Of a DNA stretch of 64,000 nt, positions 1-50,827 are shown in pieces. Position numbers and translations under genes: made by a program. Within the stretch, counting starts at the first letter, position 1. Each line of letters opens with the position of its first letter. This stretch comes from an uncultured Bacteroidia bacterium. Lineage in GTDB: Bacteria > Bacteroidota > Bacteroidia > Bacteroidales > UBA932. The notes below the pieces were generated by a model that was not told the DNA's origin, did no database searches, and worked only from the letters and a program-made list of their open reading frames with translations. The stretch lies in the NCBI GenBank assembly GCA_902794005.1, contig CADBFO010000006.1, positions 1 through 64,000 of the forward strand. The letters run 5' to 3'.

Positions 1-505
1 GCGGGATGGAATCCATCATATTGTAGAGGTTGCCGATGGCTCCGTAGAGGGCCGACCGGGTATCGTCCACCTCCTTCTCCGAATAACCCTCCGGATTGGT
101 GGGGGAGGTGGCACCGCCTGCCATCCTTTCCACTGCCGCGAGCGCCTTCCGGTAATAGACCATGGAACTGTCGAACTGCTCGGAAGACCAGAAACATTGC
201 CCCAGATATCGGTATGCATCGGCATTGGCCTCCTCCCAGCCCCTGGGTTCAGAGATGGAAAGCGCCTTGCGTGCATAGAACACGCATTTCTCGCTATTCA
301 AGGCACTGTAGCCCAACATAAGGTCCCGAAAGGCACGGTTCAGATTTACCAGTTCCTCTGTCGATGCCAAATCTATGGCATCGGGGACCCAGCGGGCGAC
401 AGCGCGCTCAAGCGAATCAAGGTTATGACCGCGGTGGTCATTATACGCGAAACCCCGTGCGCTCGTCAAAACTATCAGCAATAGAATGATACCGTTTTTT
501 CTCAT
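1..505 (-). CDS. TPR-containing secreted or sensor protein, 5' part only
   Basis: The reading frame is open from the ATG at 505 to the left edge, so only the first 168 residues are visible. It starts MRKNGIILLLIVLTS, a clear signal peptide or N-terminal anchor. Helical repeats follow in which residues about 55-130 look like tetratricopeptide repeats (NLNRAFRDLMLGYSAL, ADAYRYLGQCFWSSEQFDSS, VYYRKALAAVE). In Bacteroidota such N-termini usually belong to TPR sensor histidine kinases or TPR-LuxR/AraC regulators that continue with a membrane helix and an output domain, which here would lie outside the window. The gene is divergent from a small LuxR-type protein, which fits a regulatory role. The output domain cannot be seen, so the class is open. 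Confidence 0.7.
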   Translation of the reverse strand, partial: MRKNGIILLLIVLTSARGFAYNDHRGHNLDSLERAVARWVPDAIDLASTEELVNLNRAFRDLMLGYSALNSEKCVFYARKALSISEPRGWEEANADAYRYLGQCFWSSEQFDSSMVYYRKALAAVERMAGGATSPTNPEGYSEKEVDDTRSALYGAIGNLYNMMDSIP

Positions 506-37710: not shown

Positions 37711-40700
37711 ATGAGAGCATCGGCAAAACACATACTATTGCTGGGGATGAGCGCATTCCTGGCAGGAAGCGCACCCTCCTGCACCCGGGAGGTCATCCGG
37801 GACGAGCGGCCTGACGGCAATCACAGGGGCATCCCGGTCTCGCTGAGCATCGACGATTTAAAAACATCCGGCACGAAGTCGGTACTCAACGACCCGGATA
37901 TCGAGACCAAGGTGACAAGCGTCACGCTGGCCGCCTATTCCTCATCCGACGGGGCGCTGATTGCGTCCGAGTATTATTCCGACGCAAACGGAATGCGCCT
38001 GGATTTGGGCGAACATACGCAGGCTCGCATTTGTGCCCTGGTCAACATGGGAGATTTACGGGCTTCCTTACCGGCGAATGCCTCCGGCCTTTCCACCATG
38101 AGCTATGACATACCCTCCTATACGGGCAGTCCGGAAAGTGTCAATGAAGCCGGCATTCCCATGGCCGGCTGGCTGGATTACGACACAAGCGCTTCAGCCG
38201 GAACAGACGTCTCTGTAAAAAGGCTGATGGCCAAACTGGTCGTGGACCTGAAGGTTCATTGGGACGGATCCATTTCTTCTGTCCGGATTCGCAACATGAA
38301 CCGGCATCTCACCCCCTTCGGCGAAAGCAGGGCTCGCACGGAGGCCGATACCTTCGACGAAGAACTGGAGGCCGGAGGCGGCGTCCGTCAAGGTACTTTC
38401 GTATTTTATATTCCCGAGAACGAGCAAGGGACGGTTCCCTCCATCACTGCCTCCTCCGGCAAAAGCGGAGATAACAGTTCACTGTCGGCCATCAAAGAGC
38501 GGCTCACCTACCTGGAAGTGACGGTCAGCGGAGAGAACAAGTATGACGGGGAAATCACTTACCGCAGTTATCTGGGCAAAAACGACAGCTCGGACTTCTC
38601 CATTTCAGGAAACTGCAGGTACACCTGGAAAGTGGACTATCTTCCGGACGGAACGGTTCTCGATGACTGGAAACACGAAAATGCGCTGTCCTGGTCTGAT
38701 TTCAGATACCAGGTTTTCGCTCCCGAAATAGCGGGGTACACAGGAGACAATCTCTATGTTTACCTTCGGGAGGCGGAAGACAAATATGAGAAAGGCAAAC
38801 TGAAAACAAAGGGCAGCTTCCGGGATATCGATACGCGGCTCGCCGACTGGACACACGAAGCATGGGAGCCTTCCAATTTCCTCACCTTCAAAGAAATCGG
38901 TGAAACCTCGGGCGCTTTTTTCCGCCGATACGTCGCCAAGCAGGAAGGCAGCGGCTATGTTCAAGCCAACATAGAGCTTGAAAGCGGCATCTTTACCGAC
39001 AAAGTCCTGCTTTCCTGCCATGGCCCCGAACCCATTCTGGCCCTGGATGTCCAGCCGACCGCCATCAAATTGGGAGAAACGCTCCAGTTTTCCCTAACCT
39101 TAGACGGCAACGATCTCATGGGAGAGATTTTTACCTACTACTTCTTGCGGAAAGGCCGATTCGGGGTGAGCGCGTACGGAGGTTTCGACATAACCGCAGA
39201 TTATCATTATCACATCATCGGCAAAGACGGAAAATGGACGCCTACCGAAACCGGAACTTATGAGATGTATGCCGTCTGCAGCGCCGCCTGGGTGATTAGA
39301 CCCGTCAGTTCAAATACAGTCTCCTTTACCGTTACGGAAGCGGACAAGACATCCTACACACTCACCATCGAGCCGGGCAACCCGACTCCGAAACTCGTCG
39401 GGGAAAGCATCGGCCTCCGGGCCTATCTCAATACTTTTGTCAATGGCATGCGTTCCGGACACGAGGATATTACCGAGGCTGTCTCATGGGAGTGCGAAGA
39501 TGCGGAAGTCACCACCGATGCCGGCCAGATTGTTTCCACCAAGGAAGGAACGTTCAGCATCCGGGCCGAATACGGGGCTCCGGACGGAGAAGAATTGAGC
39601 GCCTCGGTCAACATCAGCTTTACCGGGGATCCCAATTACATTACCCTGTCGGCCAAGCCGACGTCCATTTCCGTTGGTGAGACCAGTACGGCAAGCGTCC
39701 TTTTCAACGGAAGCGGCCCTGTAACCGCATCGTCAACCATCTCGGCCTATACAAGCGAAACCGGCTCCGCCACATCGGACATCGTTCGCATCTCCGGCAG
39801 CACCATTACCGGCTCTCGTGCAGGCACATGCTACCTCGAGGCAATGTATGTCACCGGCGGCAAAACCTATCAGTCTTCTCGCGTAAAACTTATCGTGACC
39901 GACGCCGCTCCCGCTGATCCTGTGACAGTCATCTGGGAGTCTGAACCCACCTATGTTGCCCAGCGCGGAAAACTGTCCATCGGCGGGCTGCAAAGCGGCG
40001 AGACCGTCACGGGCGTCACTGCGACCTCCGGCTCAAATGTCGTGCGCATCGCTCAGTCCGGCCCCTCCTATTACGTAGGTCTGCTGAAGGCTGGCAGCTA
40101 CACCCTCACCGTCACCACATCGAAGGGGCGCACCAAGACCCTTTCGGGCACGGCTGCGGCGCCGGTGATGACTCTCTCGCAGACAACCCTGTACGCGAAT
40201 CCGGACGGCACCGTGGCCCACACGGGAACGGACGGCCTGACGGGCGGCACCCAGGGGGTGTCCTATAAGACCACGGGCGGTATAGCGTTCTCGGTGGAGA
40301 GTGCCGAGACGGCCACGGGGACGAAACTCCAGCGGGGGCTCTATGACGAGCTGCTGGATCCGACCCCGAGCACGACGGCCGGTATCCTGGGCCTCGACGG
40401 CATGGACGTCTATGCGAACGACGTGTACGAGTACACGGGAACCAACGGCCTTTCCGCCACCGAGCTTGGCACCGTGACGGTCTCCCCGAAGGCAAGCTCT
40501 GCGGGGGTCGCTTCCAAGAGCTACACCGTCAAGCGGGTGAACCCGTTTGTCTTGTGGGCGAGCACGGTCATCAGCAAGCCTGACGAGGAAGACTACGGTC
40601 TGATCAACCAGTACCACACGTACAAGTTCCACAATTACACGCAGAAGACCGTGGAACTCCCGAAGATTCTTGCCTCCGACGGCCGGTGCGGCATCGAGGT

Positions 40701-41421
40701 CCTCCGGAACGGCAGCGCCGTCTCCGGCATCTTCGCCGCGGCGTTCAACACCGCCTACATCGCCTCGGACTCCAAGTGGAACACCTCCTACACCCTCTCC
40801 GACGCGGTCCTGACCGAGCATATCGGCGGTTTCGTGGAGTTGAAGGGATACGTGAAGAACCGCCACAGCGGAAGCTGCCTGCGGCGCGCCGGCGCCCGGT
40901 TCGGCCTCTATGTCAACGGTGCCATCGGCGCCAAGATGACGGGCATCGGGACAAGCACCGTCGTGATATCGACGGCCTTCTGCGGCGACGAGGCTGACTA
41001 CGGGTTCGATCTTCTCGCAAACGGAGTCTATCTGAACAGCGTCAAACTCATCGGCACATCGTATTCCGAGAACCAGATCTTCAGTTATATCCCGAACACG
41101 AGGGTCAACAACATTCTCGTCGATGGTTCCACGCTGAACGCCCGTGTCTATCAGCTGCATCGCGATGGCGCGCCCCTTGACAGCGCAGCGCAGATCATGG
41201 AAGCCGAAAAGCCCAGATTCGAGTTCCGCTCCGTCGCCAGCATCGGCACCTTCGTCCAAAACAGCGACCTGCCAAACGCCGGTTACTATCTCCTGCAGCC
41301 GTATGGGACGCCGACGGTGCGTGACGGTTATGGTGAACACGGCTTCTACAAACTCTGGCTTCTGGAATCCATCGACGAAAGACCGGACCCCGGGCCGAAA
41401 GCCGGATGGCTCATCGACTAG
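37711..41421 (+). CDS. Large fimbrial tip adhesin-like lipoprotein
   Basis: 1236 residues. Signal peptide with Cys at 24 (APSC). Residues about 40-330 are fimbrillin-like (VSVKRLMAKLVVDLKVHWDG, CRYTWKVDYLPDGTVLDDW). Residues about 430-730 hold Ig-like repeats, including EPGNPTPKLVGESIGLRAYLN and LSAKPTSISVGETSTASVLF in BIG2 style. The last 490 residues contain no domain I recognise; WASTVISKPDEEDYGLINQYHTYKF and CGDEADYGFDLLANGVYL are typical stretches. From about 39,950 the coding sequence becomes more GC-rich. As last and largest gene of the operon it is probably the tip adhesin. Confidence 0.7.
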   Translation: MRASAKHILLLGMSAFLAGSAPSCTREVIRDERPDGNHRGIPVSLSIDDLKTSGTKSVLNDPDIETKVTSVTLAAYSSSDGALIASEYYSDANGMRLDLGEHTQARICALVNMGDLRASLPANASGLSTMSYDIPSYTGSPESVNEAGIPMAGWLDYDTSASAGTDVSVKRLMAKLVVDLKVHWDGSISSVRIRNMNRHLTPFGESRARTEADTFDEELEAGGGVRQGTFVFYIPENEQGTVPSITASSGKSGDNSSLSAIKERLTYLEVTVSGENKYDGEITYRSYLGKNDSSDFSISGNCRYTWKVDYLPDGTVLDDWKHENALSWSDFRYQVFAPEIAGYTGDNLYVYLREAEDKYEKGKLKTKGSFRDIDTRLADWTHEAWEPSNFLTFKEIGETSGAFFRRYVAKQEGSGYVQANIELESGIFTDKVLLSCHGPEPILALDVQPTAIKLGETLQFSLTLDGNDLMGEIFTYYFLRKGRFGVSAYGGFDITADYHYHIIGKDGKWTPTETGTYEMYAVCSAAWVIRPVSSNTVSFTVTEADKTSYTLTIEPGNPTPKLVGESIGLRAYLNTFVNGMRSGHEDITEAVSWECEDAEVTTDAGQIVSTKEGTFSIRAEYGAPDGEELSASVNISFTGDPNYITLSAKPTSISVGETSTASVLFNGSGPVTASSTISAYTSETGSATSDIVRISGSTITGSRAGTCYLEAMYVTGGKTYQSSRVKLIVTDAAPADPVTVIWESEPTYVAQRGKLSIGGLQSGETVTGVTATSGSNVVRIAQSGPSYYVGLLKAGSYTLTVTTSKGRTKTLSGTAAAPVMTLSQTTLYANPDGTVAHTGTDGLTGGTQGVSYKTTGGIAFSVESAETATGTKLQRGLYDELLDPTPSTTAGILGLDGMDVYANDVYEYTGTNGLSATELGTVTVSPKASSAGVASKSYTVKRVNPFVLWASTVISKPDEEDYGLINQYHTYKFHNYTQKTVELPKILASDGRCGIEVLRNGSAVSGIFAAAFNTAYIASDSKWNTSYTLSDAVLTEHIGGFVELKGYVKNRHSGSCLRRAGARFGLYVNGAIGAKMTGIGTSTVVISTAFCGDEADYGFDLLANGVYLNSVKLIGTSYSENQIFSYIPNTRVNNILVDGSTLNARVYQLHRDGAPLDSAAQIMEAEKPRFEFRSVASIGTFVQNSDLPNAGYYLLQPYGTPTVRDGYGEHGFYKLWLLESIDERPDPGPKAGWLID

Positions 41422-45571: not shown

Positions 45572-46483
45572 ATGCGACGAAGTCAGTTAATTGTTCCATT
45601 ACTTATGATTCTCACTGTGTCGTCCTGCGGCATAGTGAGATTTCGTAATGCTCCCACTTATCATGCGGGTCCTCCCTATCAGAAGGGCTACGAGCAAAAA
45701 GGATTCGTGGAAGAGATTGTTTACGACTGCAGCGTTCCCGGACCGTCGCAACGGCGCATGATTGTCTATCTCCCCCACGACTACTATCAGACGTCGAAAA
45801 GGTATCCGGTTTTCTACCTGCTTCATGGAGCCCGCGGTTATGAAACCTCGTGGATCAGGAAGGGACGCGTGTATGAATCCACGGACAGCCTGGTGGCTGC
45901 CGGCCTGGCCGTTCCCTGCATCGTGGTAATGCCCAACGTGAACCAGTACAACGATGATGAGGATTTTGAAAACAGCCGGTTCAAGGATGCGTTCGAATCC
46001 ATCTTCGAAGTGGACGGGACGGTGGAATACGCATTTGTCAAAGATGTGGTAATGCGGGTGGACAGCCTGTACCGGACCATACCGGACCGGAAACACAGAG
46101 CCATTGCAGGCCTCTCTATCGGCGGATACCAGAGCATCTATTTCGGAGCCAACCATCCGGACGTATTCGGCTTTATCGGCGCGTTTTCTCCGTATATGTG
46201 GAGCATCGGCAAAGCCACCCCCTATCGCAGGGAGTTCTACGGAAAGCTTCACGAAAGGATGGGGCTTCAATACGGGAACCTCCCCCCGGAAGGCTATTAT
46301 CTCTATGCCGGCAAGTGGGACATCATGCGTCCTTCCACCCTCAAACTGCATTACTACATGACCCGCAAAGGGTATCGGCACGAATATACCCGCTTTCCGG
46401 GCTCGCACGACTGGAAGAACGGATGGATAGAGGAATACCAGGATATGCTGCAACGTGTTTTCAAACCCCAGGATCGACAATGA
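45572..46483 (+). CDS. Esterase D-type alpha/beta hydrolase, lipoprotein
   Basis: 303 residues. Signal peptide with lipobox VSSC, Cys at 19. The fold is that of feruloyl/putative esterases: YPVFYLLHGARGYETSW near 70, nucleophile in GLSIGGYQS near 181 and catalytic His in FPGSHDWKNGW near 278. It probably removes acyl groups from a carbohydrate at the cell surface. It overlaps the following glycosyltransferase start by four bases, linking it to the downstream cassette. Substrate unknown. Confidence 0.82.
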   Translation: MRRSQLIVPLLMILTVSSCGIVRFRNAPTYHAGPPYQKGYEQKGFVEEIVYDCSVPGPSQRRMIVYLPHDYYQTSKRYPVFYLLHGARGYETSWIRKGRVYESTDSLVAAGLAVPCIVVMPNVNQYNDDEDFENSRFKDAFESIFEVDGTVEYAFVKDVVMRVDSLYRTIPDRKHRAIAGLSIGGYQSIYFGANHPDVFGFIGAFSPYMWSIGKATPYRREFYGKLHERMGLQYGNLPPEGYYLYAGKWDIMRPSTLKLHYYMTRKGYRHEYTRFPGSHDWKNGWIEEYQDMLQRVFKPQDRQ

Positions 46484-47664
46484 AAATATTATTTGTACTC
46501 AATAGTTTTTTCGCAAGCGGAAATGGACTGTCCTCCTCGGCAAGAAGGACGGTGGCCTATCTCAAGCAGGCCGGGCACGATGTCCGTGTCATGTCCGGTC
46601 CCCATCCGAATGACCCGAAAACAGAGCCGGATTATCTCCTGAAAGAATACATCTTCCCCATTGTTCATCCCATCATCAAGGCCCAGGGCTATCATTTTGC
46701 CCAAAGCAATCTTCCCCTGATGGAAGAGGCCGCCCGCTGGGCCGATATCGTCCATCTTGAAGAGCCGTTCGTGATTGAGGACCGGATGCTGCACATCTGT
46801 GAGAGACTGGGAAAACCCGTCACGGCCACTTATCACCTGCATCCGGAAAACATCACCCATTCCCTGGGACCGCTGCGTCACTGGAAAGGCCTCAACCGGA
46901 TCATTCTCCGTGCCTGGAGAAACCACACGTTCAACCACTGTGAATACGTACAGTGTCCCTCGGAGAATGTTCTGGACCGTCTGCGCCGCTATCATATCCA
47001 TGCCAAACTGGAGCTTATCTCCAACGGGATCGTCCCGGACAAGTGCATCCGGGAAGAGAATCCTCCCGAGGATTATGAAAAACCGGACCGTCCGCTGAAG
47101 CTGGTCTATATCGGCCGGCTCTCCAAGGAAAAAGATCAGACGACGCTGCTGGAAGCCATGCGGCACAGCCATTTTGCAAAACGTATCCAGCTGCATTTTG
47201 CGGGCAAGGGCCCCTCGGAAAAAGCCCTCCGTCGCAAAGCCCGCAGGCTCGTCGAAGACGGTGTTCTCACCTACGAACCGGTCTTCACTTTCGAAAACAG
47301 CGACGGGCTGCGCGAACTGGCCGCCGGTGCCGACCTCTGCATCCACTGCGCCACTATCGAAGTGGAAGGGCTGTCCATCATGGAAGCCATGCAGCAGGGT
47401 GCCGTTCCCATCATCGCCCAAGGCCGATACAGCGGCACCGCACAGTTTGCCATCGACCGCCACTGTGTTTTCCCGGAAAGAAATCCGGAGGCGCTTGCCC
47501 ACCGCATCGACTACTGGCTGTCCCATCCCGGCAAACGCTGGAAAACGGGCTGGGAATACGTCGAACACATGGAGAACTACGACATCCGGAAATCCGTCGA
47601 AAAACTGGTACAAATGTTCCGGAAGGCCATTGAACAGAAAAAAGGAAGCCAAGCAAGCATATAA
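46480..47664 (+). CDS. Glycosyltransferase family 4
   Basis: 394 residues, GT-B fold. The ATG at 46480 gives MKILFVLNSFFASGNGLSSSARRTVAYL, with the glycine-rich acceptor loop; YIGRLSKEKDQTTLLEAM near 205 opens the donor domain and EVEGLSIMEAMQQGAVP near 300 is the EX7E donor-binding motif. It transfers an activated sugar with retention. It sits between the esterase (ATGA overlap) and the HprK-like kinase (two-base gap). The sugar and acceptor are unknown. Confidence 0.88.
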   Translation: MKILFVLNSFFASGNGLSSSARRTVAYLKQAGHDVRVMSGPHPNDPKTEPDYLLKEYIFPIVHPIIKAQGYHFAQSNLPLMEEAARWADIVHLEEPFVIEDRMLHICERLGKPVTATYHLHPENITHSLGPLRHWKGLNRIILRAWRNHTFNHCEYVQCPSENVLDRLRRYHIHAKLELISNGIVPDKCIREENPPEDYEKPDRPLKLVYIGRLSKEKDQTTLLEAMRHSHFAKRIQLHFAGKGPSEKALRRKARRLVEDGVLTYEPVFTFENSDGLRELAAGADLCIHCATIEVEGLSIMEAMQQGAVPIIAQGRYSGTAQFAIDRHCVFPERNPEALAHRIDYWLSHPGKRWKTGWEYVEHMENYDIRKSVEKLVQMFRKAIEQKKGSQASI

Positions 47665-47666
47665 TC

Positions 47667-48527
47667 ATGCACGACATTCACTCATATCAAGTGGCCGGGT
47701 TCCGCTTCACCATAGAGGGGCCCCTGCCCTCCGTACCCAACCTGACGCCGTTCCTGTCCGAAGAGGGGGAAAACCTCTTCCGTCTGGAACTGGTTTCCAG
47801 CATGGCCCCCGCCGTTTCCTCGCCCGTTTTCAAGACGGAAGACGGCCCCGGTTTCCCCGAGATTGCCATCGACACGCTGGAGGAAGGAGGATACCGCTTC
47901 CGCATGCGTCCCCTCCCCGGGAAACCCCTGGCGGCGGAACTCCGCACCAGCCCCGATTTCACCCGGGCGCAGCTGCTCTTTCTGGGAGAAGACCATTCCT
48001 TCGCCCTGAATAATTCGCTCATGCTGCTGTTCGCTTTTGCATCGGCCTGTCACGGAGCGCTGGAAATGCATTCTTCCGTTGTCATGAACGAGGGAAAGGG
48101 ATACCTTTTCCTGGGCAAGAGCGGAACCGGAAAGAGTACCCACAGCAGCCTCTGGCTCAAGCACATCCCGGGAACGGAACTCCTGAACGACGACAATCCC
48201 ATCCTCCGTCTGATGCCGGACGGGACCGCCCGCGTTTACGGCTCTCCCTGGAGCGGAAAAACGCCCTGCTACAAAAATATGGAGGTTCCTGCGGGAGCCG
48301 TCGTGCGCATCCGCCAGGCTCCTTACAACAAAATAGAGCGTCTTTCCGGTATCCAGGCATACGCCTCCCTGATGGCGTCGGCCTCCTCCTTCCGCCCGTT
48401 CAAAGAACTGGCCGAAGGCTGGCACCGGACACTGGAGGGACTGGTTGCGGTCCTCCCCTGCTATGTATTGGATTGCCTGCCCGATCAGGCCGCCGCAGAA
48501 CTTTGTTACAAAACGGTCCATGGATAA
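47667..48527 (+). CDS. HPr kinase-like P-loop kinase of a RiPP-type cassette
   Basis: 286 residues. The C-terminal two thirds resemble the HprK/PckA kinase core: FLGKSGTGKSTHSSLW (Walker A near 149-157), LLNDDNPILRL near 170 and YGSPWSGKTPCY near 188. The N-terminal part (about 1-100) is unlike true HprK, so this belongs to the HprK-related kinases found beside PqqD and S24/S26 genes in peptide clusters, some of which phosphorylate a peptide. It overlaps the peptidase gene by eight bases. The target is unknown. Confidence 0.78.
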   Translation: MHDIHSYQVAGFRFTIEGPLPSVPNLTPFLSEEGENLFRLELVSSMAPAVSSPVFKTEDGPGFPEIAIDTLEEGGYRFRMRPLPGKPLAAELRTSPDFTRAQLLFLGEDHSFALNNSLMLLFAFASACHGALEMHSSVVMNEGKGYLFLGKSGTGKSTHSSLWLKHIPGTELLNDDNPILRLMPDGTARVYGSPWSGKTPCYKNMEVPAGAVVRIRQAPYNKIERLSGIQAYASLMASASSFRPFKELAEGWHRTLEGLVAVLPCYVLDCLPDQAAAELCYKTVHG

Positions 48528-48939
48528 ACGAACCATCGCCAACGAGGTGTTGCTGGAAGACGCCGCAACCCTGATGAATGAAGGACGCGAGATTACGCTC
48601 ACGCCCCTTGGCAACAGCATGCTTCCCTTTATCCGTGGCGGCAAGGATGCCGTGCGCCTGCGCAAGAACCCTTCCGTCTCCGTCGGAGACATCATCCTGG
48701 TCCGCCTCCCGGGCCGATATGTCCTGCACCGGCTCATCCGCATGGAAGGAGACCGTCTTACCCTCATGGGAGACGGGAACATCGCAGGAACGGAATCCTG
48801 CACGTCGGAAGACGTCCTGGGCACGGTGACGGCCATCCTGCGGGGAGGAAAAGAAATCAAGCCCGGGGACGGACGCCTATGGCGACGCCTCCTGCCTGTC
48901 AGAAGATATATTTTAGCCATTTACAGAAGACTGATATGA
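48520..48939 (+). CDS. S24/S26-type (signal-peptidase-like) peptidase
   Basis: 139 residues. LTPLGNSMLPFIRGGKDAVRL near 29-49 carries the catalytic Ser in the G-x-S-M-x-P box. RYVLHRLIRMEGDRLTLMGDGN near 72 has HR at the place of the general base, as in SipW-type (S26B) peptidases that use His in place of Lys. It has no clear N-terminal membrane anchor; a C-terminal RRYILAIYRRLI segment may touch the membrane. It lies between the kinase (eight-base overlap) and PqqD (ATGA overlap), suggesting leader cleavage of a peptide substrate. Confidence 0.78.
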   Translation: MDKRTIANEVLLEDAATLMNEGREITLTPLGNSMLPFIRGGKDAVRLRKNPSVSVGDIILVRLPGRYVLHRLIRMEGDRLTLMGDGNIAGTESCTSEDVLGTVTAILRGGKEIKPGDGRLWRRLLPVRRYILAIYRRLI

Positions 48940-49205
48940 AAATCAAAGAAGGTTTTATTCTGCGCACCATCTGCGGAGAACATGTAGTTGTGGGCGAAGG
49001 CATCGCCCAGGTGAATTTCAACAAGATGCTGTCCCTGAACGAATCCGCCGCCTATCTCTGGAAAGAGGCGGAGGGAAAGGAATTTACCCGCGAAACGCTT
49101 ATCACGCTCCTGCTGGACAAGTATGACGTATCCCGGGAGCAAGCCGCCGAGGACGTAGATAAACTGGTCTGCACCTGGATTAAGGAAGGCGTAGTCTGCG
49201 AGTAA
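48936..49205 (+). CDS. PqqD-family peptide-recognition protein
   Basis: 89 residues, standard for PqqD/RRE proteins, which bind the leader of a ribosomal peptide and present it to enzymes. The family pattern is visible in MLSLNESAAYLWKEAEGKEFTRETLITLLLDKYDVSREQAAEDVDKLVCTW, an N-terminal beta sheet then three helices. The start at 48936 overlaps the peptidase stop (ATGA). The ABC exporter begins two bases after it. No precursor peptide frame is seen in the tightly packed cassette. Confidence 0.88.
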   Translation: MKIKEGFILRTICGEHVVVGEGIAQVNFNKMLSLNESAAYLWKEAEGKEFTRETLITLLLDKYDVSREQAAEDVDKLVCTWIKEGVVCE

Positions 49206-49207
49206 AC

Positions 49208-50827
49208 ATGAAGAGTTTCAAGGCATGCGTCAGGACCGTCTGGTCCCTTTCCCGCCCCGTGAGGTGGCGGGTGGCCGTCACCATCCTGGTGGGGGTGGTC
49301 CGCATCGCCGTATCCCTGAGTTTCGTCTGGGCGAGCAAATACCTGGTCGATATCGCCACGCACGTCAAAACCGATCCGCTGGGTCCGGCCATCGGCCTTT
49401 TTATCGGAATCCTTGCCACCCAGCTGGCCGCCATCATCTTCGCCGGCTGGTGGGACAGTTACAACCAGGTGAAGGCACAGAATCTCTTCCGGAAAAGCCT
49501 CTTCGGCCATGTGCTCAAGAGCCGCTGGGACGGACGGGAGCGCTTCCTTTCCGGAGACACCGTCAACCGGCTGGAGGAAGACATCCGCGTGGTATCGGAC
49601 CTTATCTGCGAACGCATCCCCGGGCTGGCCATCACCGTCGTGCAGCTGCTGGCCGCATCGGCCTACTTGCTGGTGCTGGCACCCAATCTGCTGTGGGTGC
49701 TCGTCATCCTGATGGGCGCCGCCGTCCTCGGATCCAAGATGTTCTTTCGCCAGATTCGGAAACTCATGTCCCACATCCGCGCCCGGGAGAGTGAAATGCA
49801 GCAGCTCATGCAGGAAAGCCTGCAGCACCGGGTACTGGTCCTTACGCTCACCCATGTCGATCGCGTCCTGGAGAAATTCGGCTGGTTACAGGCCGATGTC
49901 GAGGGGAACACCCGCAAACGGCTCAACTACAACGCCGTCGCCCGCGGGCTCATGTTCCTCGGCTTCCAGGCAGGCCATGCCGCCGCCTTCCTATGGGGCA
50001 TTTTCGGCATCCTGCACGGAACCGTCACCTACGGAACCATGACGGCCTTCCTGCAGCTGGTTTCCCAGGTGCAGCGGCCCATTGCGGAATTCGGCCGGCA
50101 GATTCCGGCCTTCATCACAGCCCTCACCTCGGTGGAAAGGCTCATGGAACTGCTGGAACTGGAAGAGGAGCCCGTTTCTGACGCCATCCGGCTCAGCGGC
50201 GCCCCGGAAGTGACGGTCAGCCACCTTTCCTACCGCTATCCGGACACTTCGGAGGAGGTGATCAAGGACTTCTCCTGCACCTTCCCCGCCGGCAGCCTCA
50301 CTGCCATCGCCGGGCCTACCGGTATCGGGAAAAGCACCCTCATCCGCTTGGTTCTGGGTCTGCTGAAACCCTCGGAAGGCAGTGTCACCATTGGTGGGAT
50401 TCCCGCTGGAAGCGCCCTGAGGGGCAATTTCATGTATATTCCGCAAGGCAACTCTCTCCTGAGCGGCACCATCCGGAGCAATCTTCAGCTGGCAGCCCCG
50501 CAGGCCACCGAGCAGCAGATGTACGAAGCCCTCGAAACCGCCATGGCCGGCTTTGTACGTGATCTCCCCTCCGCTTTGGACACCCCCTGCGGAGAAATCG
50601 GAAGCGGACTCAGCGAGGGGCAGGCACAGCGCATCGCCATCGCCCGGGCCCTCCTCCGCCCCGGCGGCATCCTCATCCTGGATGAAAGCACGTCGGCCCT
50701 GGACCCGTCCACCGAGCAAAGCCTGCTGGAGAACCTCCACAGCCGTTATCACGGAAAGAAAACCATCCTCTTCATCTCCCACAGGGAGGCCGTGACAAAA
50801 TATGCCGATCATATCGTCAACTTATAA
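49208..50827 (+). CDS. ABC-type exporter, fused membrane and ATPase domains
   Basis: 539 residues, a half-transporter. The membrane domain (about 1-310) has six helices; the nucleotide-binding domain has GPTGIGKST (Walker A, near 369), SGLSEGQAQR (signature, near 468), LILDEST (Walker B) and ISHRE (H-loop). It lacks an N-terminal C39 peptidase domain, which would fit a leader being cut by the separate S26-type peptidase. It would export the product of the kinase-peptidase-PqqD cassette. The signature is LSEGQ, not LSGGQ. Confidence 0.9.
   Translation: MKSFKACVRTVWSLSRPVRWRVAVTILVGVVRIAVSLSFVWASKYLVDIATHVKTDPLGPAIGLFIGILATQLAAIIFAGWWDSYNQVKAQNLFRKSLFGHVLKSRWDGRERFLSGDTVNRLEEDIRVVSDLICERIPGLAITVVQLLAASAYLLVLAPNLLWVLVILMGAAVLGSKMFFRQIRKLMSHIRARESEMQQLMQESLQHRVLVLTLTHVDRVLEKFGWLQADVEGNTRKRLNYNAVARGLMFLGFQAGHAAAFLWGIFGILHGTVTYGTMTAFLQLVSQVQRPIAEFGRQIPAFITALTSVERLMELLELEEEPVSDAIRLSGAPEVTVSHLSYRYPDTSEEVIKDFSCTFPAGSLTAIAGPTGIGKSTLIRLVLGLLKPSEGSVTIGGIPAGSALRGNFMYIPQGNSLLSGTIRSNLQLAAPQATEQQMYEALETAMAGFVRDLPSALDTPCGEIGSGLSEGQAQRIAIARALLRPGGILILDESTSALDPSTEQSLLENLHSRYHGKKTILFISHREAVTKYADHIVNL

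What the first reader, a model, noticed from the sequence alone, without database searches (positions are those of the whole stretch)
46480..50827. Kinase, S26 peptidase, PqqD and exporter cassette with no visible precursor
Five genes are packed with overlaps or two-base gaps: glycosyltransferase, HprK-like kinase, S24/S26 peptidase with a SipW-like Ser-His pair, PqqD and a half ABC exporter without a C39 domain. An HPr-kinase-like enzyme, PqqD and an exporter also occur together in some lasso-peptide clusters, where the kinase can phosphorylate the peptide. Here there is no lasso cyclase, no transglutaminase-like B2 protease, no radical SAM enzyme and no small precursor frame. The set could mature a peptide encoded elsewhere, with phosphate and sugar as the modifications, or act on a protein. 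The upstream esterase gene overlaps the glycosyltransferase.
Basis: partly seen in the sequence, partly recalled or inferred. Interest (0 to 1): 0.78.

Follow-up and report, generated by a model that had tools for sequence, protein, structure and literature searches.

The report
Peptide-phosphorylating cassette with scattered precursors
This bacterium, whose closest relatives come from rumens, carries one set of genes that looks built to phosphorylate, trim and export small peptides, and the likely peptides are encoded elsewhere in its genome beside genes for predicted surface lipoproteins.

Summary
The cassette is real: HprK-like kinase, SipW-like S24/S26 peptidase, PqqD and half ABC exporter, overlapping or 2 nt apart. 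Except for an NTP transferase it matches the LPP (linear polyphosphorylated peptide) RiPP enzyme set of Popov et al. 2026 (PMC13381572), described as restricted to Bacillota. Catalytic and leader-binding residues are conserved. The glycosyltransferase and esterase are neighbours only (3 and 4 of 120 related loci). Likely precursors lie in trans: small acidic peptides, M..Y..P..EVVE...EG.[ILF][CA].S, six in this genome, all on other contigs. In a Bacteroidia sample they occur in 5 of 5 genomes with a strong kinase match and 0 of 290 others; in the family sample, 49 of 59 kinase-positive against 4 of 90 kinase-negative. Of 70 distinct peptide genes with enough flank, 58 have a lipoprotein gene within 150 nt downstream. 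Best reading: an LPP-like system in Bacteroidota in which one cassette serves dispersed precursors. Binding, phosphorylation and cleavage are inferred, not shown.

The parts
47667..48527 (+). HprK-like Ser kinase (LppK-like); H135, K156, D175, D176
   Evidence: the four residues are identical in 116 of 116 aligned sequences (window plus 115 loci; frames outside 240-480 aa left out); they fit the His-Lys-Asp-Asp set reported for lasso-peptide kinases (PMC9266682 passage)
48520..48939 (+). S24/S26 (SipW/SpI-like) peptidase without obvious membrane segment, LppS-like; S33, H70, D85
   Evidence: triad identical in 105 of 105 aligned Bacteroidales sequences, window included; maximum 19-residue hydropathy 0.94 in the window protein. 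In the Butyrivibrio relative the Asp position is Glu
48936..49205 (+). PqqD-family discrete RRE (LppB-like); N35 and D73
   Evidence: N35 and D73 identical in 114 of 114 aligned sequences, window included; they align with a Gly and a Gln of PbaB1 (9x90) whose spacing fits G42 and Q79, the positions of LppB N33 and D70
49208..50827 (+). Half ABC exporter without C39 domain (LppD-like)
46480..47664 (+). GT4 glycosyltransferase: neighbour, not conserved with the cassette
   Evidence: near the kinase in 3 of 120 loci (L072-L074, the closest relatives)
45572..46483 (+). Esterase (PF00756): neighbour, not part of the cassette
   Evidence: 4 of 120 loci

Best explanation
The four genes 47667-50827 are the maturation and export machinery of an LPP-like RiPP system. 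PqqD binds the leader of small peptides through a Y-x-x-P motif, the kinase phosphorylates a conserved Ser 18-20 residues after that Tyr, the SipW-like peptidase removes the leader just before it (predicted cut after Tyr+16, leaving [C/A/M]-x-S at the new N terminus), and the ABC exporter sends the acidic core across the inner membrane. The precursors are not in the cassette: at least six are scattered on other contigs, each beside a lipoprotein gene. Shown here: gene content, conserved catalytic and motif residues, the precursor family, its co-occurrence with the kinase and its lipoprotein neighbours. Inferred: binding, phosphorylation, cleavage site, export, and any role with the lipoproteins.
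For: Same enzyme set as LPP: kinase LppK, RRE LppB, SpI-like LppS, exporter LppD (PMC13381572 sections 6-8 and 10-12). PqqD N35/D73 identical in 114 of 114 and aligned to the positions that hold YxxP. S/H/D triad 105 of 105. Model A2, built without any sequence of this genome, finds 6 genes in it, E 6e-8 to 0.004. Class sample, 295 genomes besides the window's own: precursors in 5 of 5 genomes with kinase E below 1e-70 and in 0 of 290 others (Fisher 5.6e-11). Family sample of 149: 49 of 59 kinase-positive against 4 of 90 kinase-negative (Fisher 1.8e-24; 40 of 50 against 4 of 90 without nine genomes known to have given rows to the model). A model of the 33 A4 rows absent from the cassette loci finds 25 precursors in 23 of 120 loci, 10 of the 25 within 250 nt of a cassette gene. 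A Prevotella MAG (L110) has precursor, NTP transferase, kinase, S24, PqqD and ABC in a row. A Butyrivibrio plasmid has kinase, 57-aa ORF MKKAYVKPEL..., PqqD and S24 adjacent. Ser at Tyr+18..20 in 70 of 74 distinct precursors; the first regex did not ask for Ser, though later model searches favour it.
Against: Not one step is shown biochemically. Eight kinase-positive family genomes still lack a precursor with the wider model, one of nine genomes reached by locus lacks one (G451), and four genomes have precursors without kinase or PqqD. Six class-sample genomes with weak kinase matches have no precursor. The exact LPP motif (HQ, FET) is not matched. The NTP transferase was not found in this genome. 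Linkage is 25 hits against 5.4 expected at this genome's density, but 15 at the density of the richest relative. The Butyrivibrio ORF has no Ser at Tyr+18..20. Genomes in these counts are related, so the Fisher values overstate independence.
Confidence: 0.8

Rival explanations
1. The cassette matures other substrates (an unrelated peptide or a protein), and the YxxP peptides co-occur only because both are common in the same lineages.
For: 8 kinase-positive family genomes without a detected precursor; 4 precursor-positive genomes without the cassette; no precursor in the window.
Against: 5 of 5 against 0 of 290 across three genera and two families; 10 precursors within 250 nt of a cassette gene among 120 loci; a linked full cluster (L110); RRE residues that hold YxxP are invariant.
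Confidence: 0.12
2. The small ORFs are regulatory leader ORFs controlling translation of the downstream lipoprotein, not RiPP precursors.
For: 58 of 70 have a lipoprotein gene within 150 nt downstream.
Against: A leader ORF would need no kinase/PqqD cassette, yet presence follows the cassette. Protein-level motif and Ser spacing are conserved. dN is below dS in 7 of 9 aligned pairs; in L173/L226 it is above (5.5 against 0.5 changes) and in L212/L220 there are only 2 changes, both nonsynonymous. Twelve of 70 precursors have no lipoprotein within 150 nt.
Confidence: 0.06
3. Remnant of a lasso-peptide (paeninodin or pseudomycoidin type) cluster that lost cyclase and B2 peptidase.
For: HprK-like kinase, PqqD and NTP transferase also occur in paeninodin-like clusters.
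Against: PqqD carries Asn where paeninodin RREs carry Gly; the S24/S26 peptidase is present in 104 of 120 loci, so the set is stable, not decaying.
Confidence: 0.04

Closest known systems
LPP (linear polyphosphorylated peptide) RiPPs, lppA/K/B/S/D/N of Paenibacillus alginolyticus (PMC13381572, Nat Commun 2026; abstract and sections 6-8, 10-12 read)
   Same: HprK-like kinase, discrete PqqD RRE with the N/D pair, SipW-like leader peptidase with S/H/D, MsbA-like exporter, Y-x-x-P leader, Ser three residues after the (here predicted) cut
   Different: Bacteroidota, while the paper calls LPPs restricted to Bacillota; no NTP transferase found in this genome; precursors dispersed and multi-copy rather than one to three in the cluster; leader body is EVVE...EG instead of VLxHQxIxFET; short acidic cores; lipoprotein neighbours
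Paeninodin and pseudomycoidin lasso peptides (PMC9266682, passages read)
   Same: HprK-like peptide kinase, PqqD B1; NTP transferase in relatives
   Different: no cyclase or B2 among the genes scanned; RRE has Asn, not Gly; Ser near the N terminus of the predicted core rather than at the C terminus
HPr-rel-A system (NCBIfam TIGR04352; its partner genes are recalled, no call)
   Same: distantly related kinase beside a PqqD protein
   Different: kinase scores 18.9 bits against a cut-off of 200

Membership tests
LPP RiPP family (PMC13381572) | HprK-like kinase | tested here: met
   H135/K156/D175/D176 identical in 116 of 116; overall match to HprK models weak; LppK itself was not compared
LPP RiPP family (PMC13381572) | discrete RRE with Asn and Asp that hold YxxP (LppB N33, D70) | tested here: met
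   N35/D73 identical in 114 of 114; aligned through TfuB1 (E 8.5e-5) and PbaB1 (E 0.1); LppB itself (9x8z) matches at E 0.74 only and its alignment was not shown
LPP RiPP family (PMC13381572) | SpI-like leader peptidase with Ser/His/Asp | tested here: met
   S33/H70/D85 in 105 of 105
LPP RiPP family (PMC13381572) | MsbA-like exporter | tested here: met
LPP RiPP family (PMC13381572) | NTP transferase (LppN) | tested here: not met
   not found in the G000 assembly; present in 35 of 120 related loci, PF14907 E 1.9e-31 in one
LPP RiPP family (PMC13381572) | precursor in the cluster with YxxPxVLxHQxIxFETxxS | tested here: not met
   no precursor in the window; trans-encoded peptides share Y-x-x-P and nearly the same Tyr-Ser spacing but not HQ or FET
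LPP RiPP family (PMC13381572) | polyphosphorylated Ser at core position 3 | not testable with these tools
   needs expression and mass spectrometry
Lasso peptides | macrolactam synthetase (C) and B2 protease | tested here: not met
   not among the cassette or adjoining genes scanned; the rest of the genome was not searched for them
HPr-rel-A system | kinase over the TIGR04352 cut-off | tested here: not met
   18.9 bits against 200

The most novel reading that the evidence does not exclude
Bacteroidota run a genome-wide phosphopeptide display system: one LPP-like cassette in trans matures a repertoire of peptides, each encoded beside its own surface lipoprotein (fimbrillin-like, BspA-LRR, glycosidase or lectin type), so that each lipoprotein receives or works with its own phosphorylated peptide.
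Probability: 0.4. Interest if true: 0.88.

Novelty: new variant of a known kind. Interest (0 to 1): 0.75.

Why it matters
It carries a RiPP class described in 2026 as restricted to Bacillota into Bacteroidales of the rumen and gut, and explains a puzzling kind of cluster, maturation genes without a precursor, by precursors in trans. It gives a candidate role to a family of small proteins that matches no Pfam or NCBIfam model beyond chance (best E 0.014 among 50 members) and ties them to lipoproteins, making a direct genetic and mass-spectrometry test possible.

Tried and rejected
Precursor next to the cassette: rejected for the window. In 20 of 40 family loci an ORF of 150 aa or more lies within 100 nt on either side of the cassette, though 23 of 120 loci do hold a precursor somewhere in the fetched stretch.

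Glycosyltransferase as a tailoring enzyme: rejected as core, 3 of 120 loci. NTP transferase elsewhere in the genome: none found.

A strict YxxP regex gave 14 hits, mostly chance. A looser one (ORFs of 30-150 aa among 21641 listed) gave 51 hits, of which 19 picked by eye made A2; most of the rest looked like chance. A wide regex over loci without a precursor was too noisy to use, apart from the Butyrivibrio locus.

Sequence search of solved structures with the single PqqD gave nothing; the kinase profile gave mainly P-loop matches to ABC transporters and PEP carboxykinases.

The lipobox regex found 46 of the 58 lipoproteins; I added 12 by eye from the 13 rows printed as 'orf' (L168 left out). 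Base rate of a slightly narrower regex: 199 of 1359 ORFs of 150 aa or more. Three of 84 loci gave no precursor assignment and one assignment (L206) looks wrong.
Full report
What is there. Six genes run 45572-50827 with 2-nt gaps or short overlaps: esterase, GT4 glycosyltransferase, HprK-like kinase, S24/S26 peptidase, PqqD, half ABC exporter. The exporter has no C39 match and there is no room for a precursor gene.

What is conserved. A kinase search over 149 genomes of the window's family found it in 59 (the same 59 with a profile). I fetched loci from 40 of those 59 and 80 more from genome contigs with titles (the best 80 of 544 confirmed). Within 7 kb of the kinase, S24 was found in 104, PqqD in 114, ABC in 92, an NTP transferase in 35, the glycosyltransferase in 3 and the esterase in 4 of 120. 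The commonest order is kinase-S24-PqqD-ABC, with the NTP transferase sometimes between PqqD and ABC. One such NTP transferase scanned is PF14907 (E 1.9e-31). In L058 kinase and S24 are one open frame, which would fit joint action. The glycosyltransferase belongs to the neighbourhood only in the closest relatives L072-L074.

What it matches. Popov et al. 2026 (PMC13381572; abstract, sections 6-8 and 10-12 read, passages elsewhere) describe LPPs: LppA precursor, LppK HprK-like kinase, LppB RRE, LppS SipW-like peptidase, LppD exporter, LppN NTP transferase. LppK puts phosphates on Ser 3 of the core; LppS with LppB removes the leader; LppB N33 and D70 hold Pro-13 and Tyr-16 of the YxxP leader; deleting lppN changed no detectable product. 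The authors state that LPPs are restricted to Bacillota, and the word stem 'bacteroid' does not occur in the main text. In the Bacteroidales set the kinase His-Lys-Asp-Asp set is identical in 116 of 116, the peptidase Ser-His-Asp in 105 of 105, and PqqD N35/D73 in 114 of 114 aligned sequences, the window included and frames of odd length left out. N35 and D73 align with a Gly and a Gln of PbaB1 whose spacing fits G42 and Q79, which the paper equates with LppB N33 and D70, and with Asn and Asp of TfuB1. The peptidase has no obvious membrane segment.

The candidate precursors. A regex for Y-x-x-P followed by Glu and a hydrophobic residue, not asking for Ser, gave 51 hits in the 120 loci and the window; the single window hit does not resemble the family. 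Nineteen picked by eye made model A2. In the window's own genome, which gave A2 no row, A2 found six small genes on six other contigs, for example MKKEKYEAPTVIAVEMKQEGVICTSGDVTATMDGIFSEETI. Over the 50 sequences of A4 the pattern is Y0, P3, E6 (25), V/I7 (38), E9 (38), E13 (32), G14 (20), I/L/F16 (45), C/A/M17 (46), S19 (35). Over 74 distinct precursors of 32-72 aa, Ser lies at Tyr+18 to +20 in 70; predicted cores have median length 21 and median net charge -4. In LPP, Tyr-16 to Ser+3 spans 18. A cut after position 16 would put Ser at core position 3; this is inference. The 50 match no Pfam or NCBIfam family beyond chance.

Co-occurrence. Class sample: 296 genomes including G000. Kinase at E below 1e-70 in G000, G277, G303, G327, G186, G374; six more genomes have weak kinase matches (E 1e-13 to 1e-26). 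Precursors at E 0.01 or better occur in exactly the first six genomes. Without G000: 5 of 5 against 0 of 290, or 5 of 11 against 0 of 284 if weak kinases count. The precursors found in these five genomes are not rows of the model used, A3 (compare). Family sample of 149: both 49, kinase only 10, precursor only 4, neither 86; without nine genomes known to have given rows to the model, 40, 10, 4 and 86. With the wider model A4 two of the ten become positive, and the 18 kinase-negative genomes retested stay negative. The four precursor-only genomes have no PqqD either; two are under 83% complete, two are 96-99% complete and are exceptions so far. Of ten genomes named by locus, nine were held and eight had precursors, 1 to 17 copies; one of these, G449, holds a row of the model. 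Relatedness among genomes was not corrected for.

Linkage. A model made only from the 33 rows of A4 absent from the cassette loci found 25 precursors in 23 of 120 loci, 19 of 25 on the kinase strand and 10 within 250 nt of a cassette gene. Expected by density: 5.4 at that of G000, 15 at that of the richest relative, G447, so the nearness to the cassette tells more than the count. In L110, a Prevotella MAG, the precursor stands directly before NTP transferase, kinase, S24, PqqD and ABC. On a Butyrivibrio plasmid a 57-aa ORF with the same start motif lies between kinase and PqqD-S24; it has no Ser at Tyr+18 to +20, and its peptidase has Glu at the Asp position.

Lipoprotein neighbours. In G000 all six precursors lie beside a lipoprotein-like gene, five before it and one (L157, at a contig end) after it. 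Of 70 distinct precursors with at least 300 nt downstream, 58 are followed within 150 nt on the same strand by a lipoprotein gene (46 by regex, 12 by eye), against a regex base rate of 199 of 1359 ORFs. Of the 12 exceptions, eight (L190, L192, L194, L216, L218, L225, L236, L237) come from genomes outside the window's family: two unnamed ones of another family and three Segatella or Prevotellaceae ones. The 37 partners aligned share the lipobox Cys, and most a T-K...W..GD.I.V pattern. Pfam finds fimbrillin-like in 5, BspA-type LRR in 3, Lcl_C in 2, and single glycosidase, laminin G and other domains among the 37. What the pairing means is open.

Reading. One cassette in trans appears to phosphorylate, trim and export a dispersed set of peptides. 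I do not file it as an LPP in the strict sense, because two published features were tested and not met here: a precursor in the cluster with the full motif, and the NTP transferase. It works like an LPP system. Seven literature searches listed no paper whose title or abstract start reports such a system in Bacteroidota. I opened only three papers (PMC13381572; passages of PMC9266682 and of PMC10352776, a RiPP survey of Bacteroidales); the ruminal lasso-peptide survey PMC7533575 was listed but not opened, and most subscription papers are not in the library.

Noticed in passing
L155 (G000) and L232 (G447): Two precursors from different genomes have the same core-coding DNA except the last base, but different leader-coding DNA, as if the 3' part had been exchanged.
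   Followed up: partly
L046:8390-10567, L050:6556-8742, L136: The kinase is in one open frame of over 720 aa with an upstream protein; in L046 the upstream part looks like IspG (recalled, not searched).
   Followed up: no
L058:7437-8948: Kinase and S24/S26 peptidase form one 503-aa open frame.
   Followed up: no
L062, L065, L117, L132, L144: Cassette genes sit beside what look by eye like glycosyltransferases or a sugar transferase, hinting at a link with surface polysaccharide as reported for Bacillota LPP loci.
   Followed up: no
G447 (genome of L072): Seventeen precursor matches in one close relative of the window's genome, the most seen among the nine genomes.
   Followed up: no
window 37711-41421: A 1236-aa DUF4906 lipoprotein-like protein with no YxxP small gene directly before it.
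   Followed up: partly
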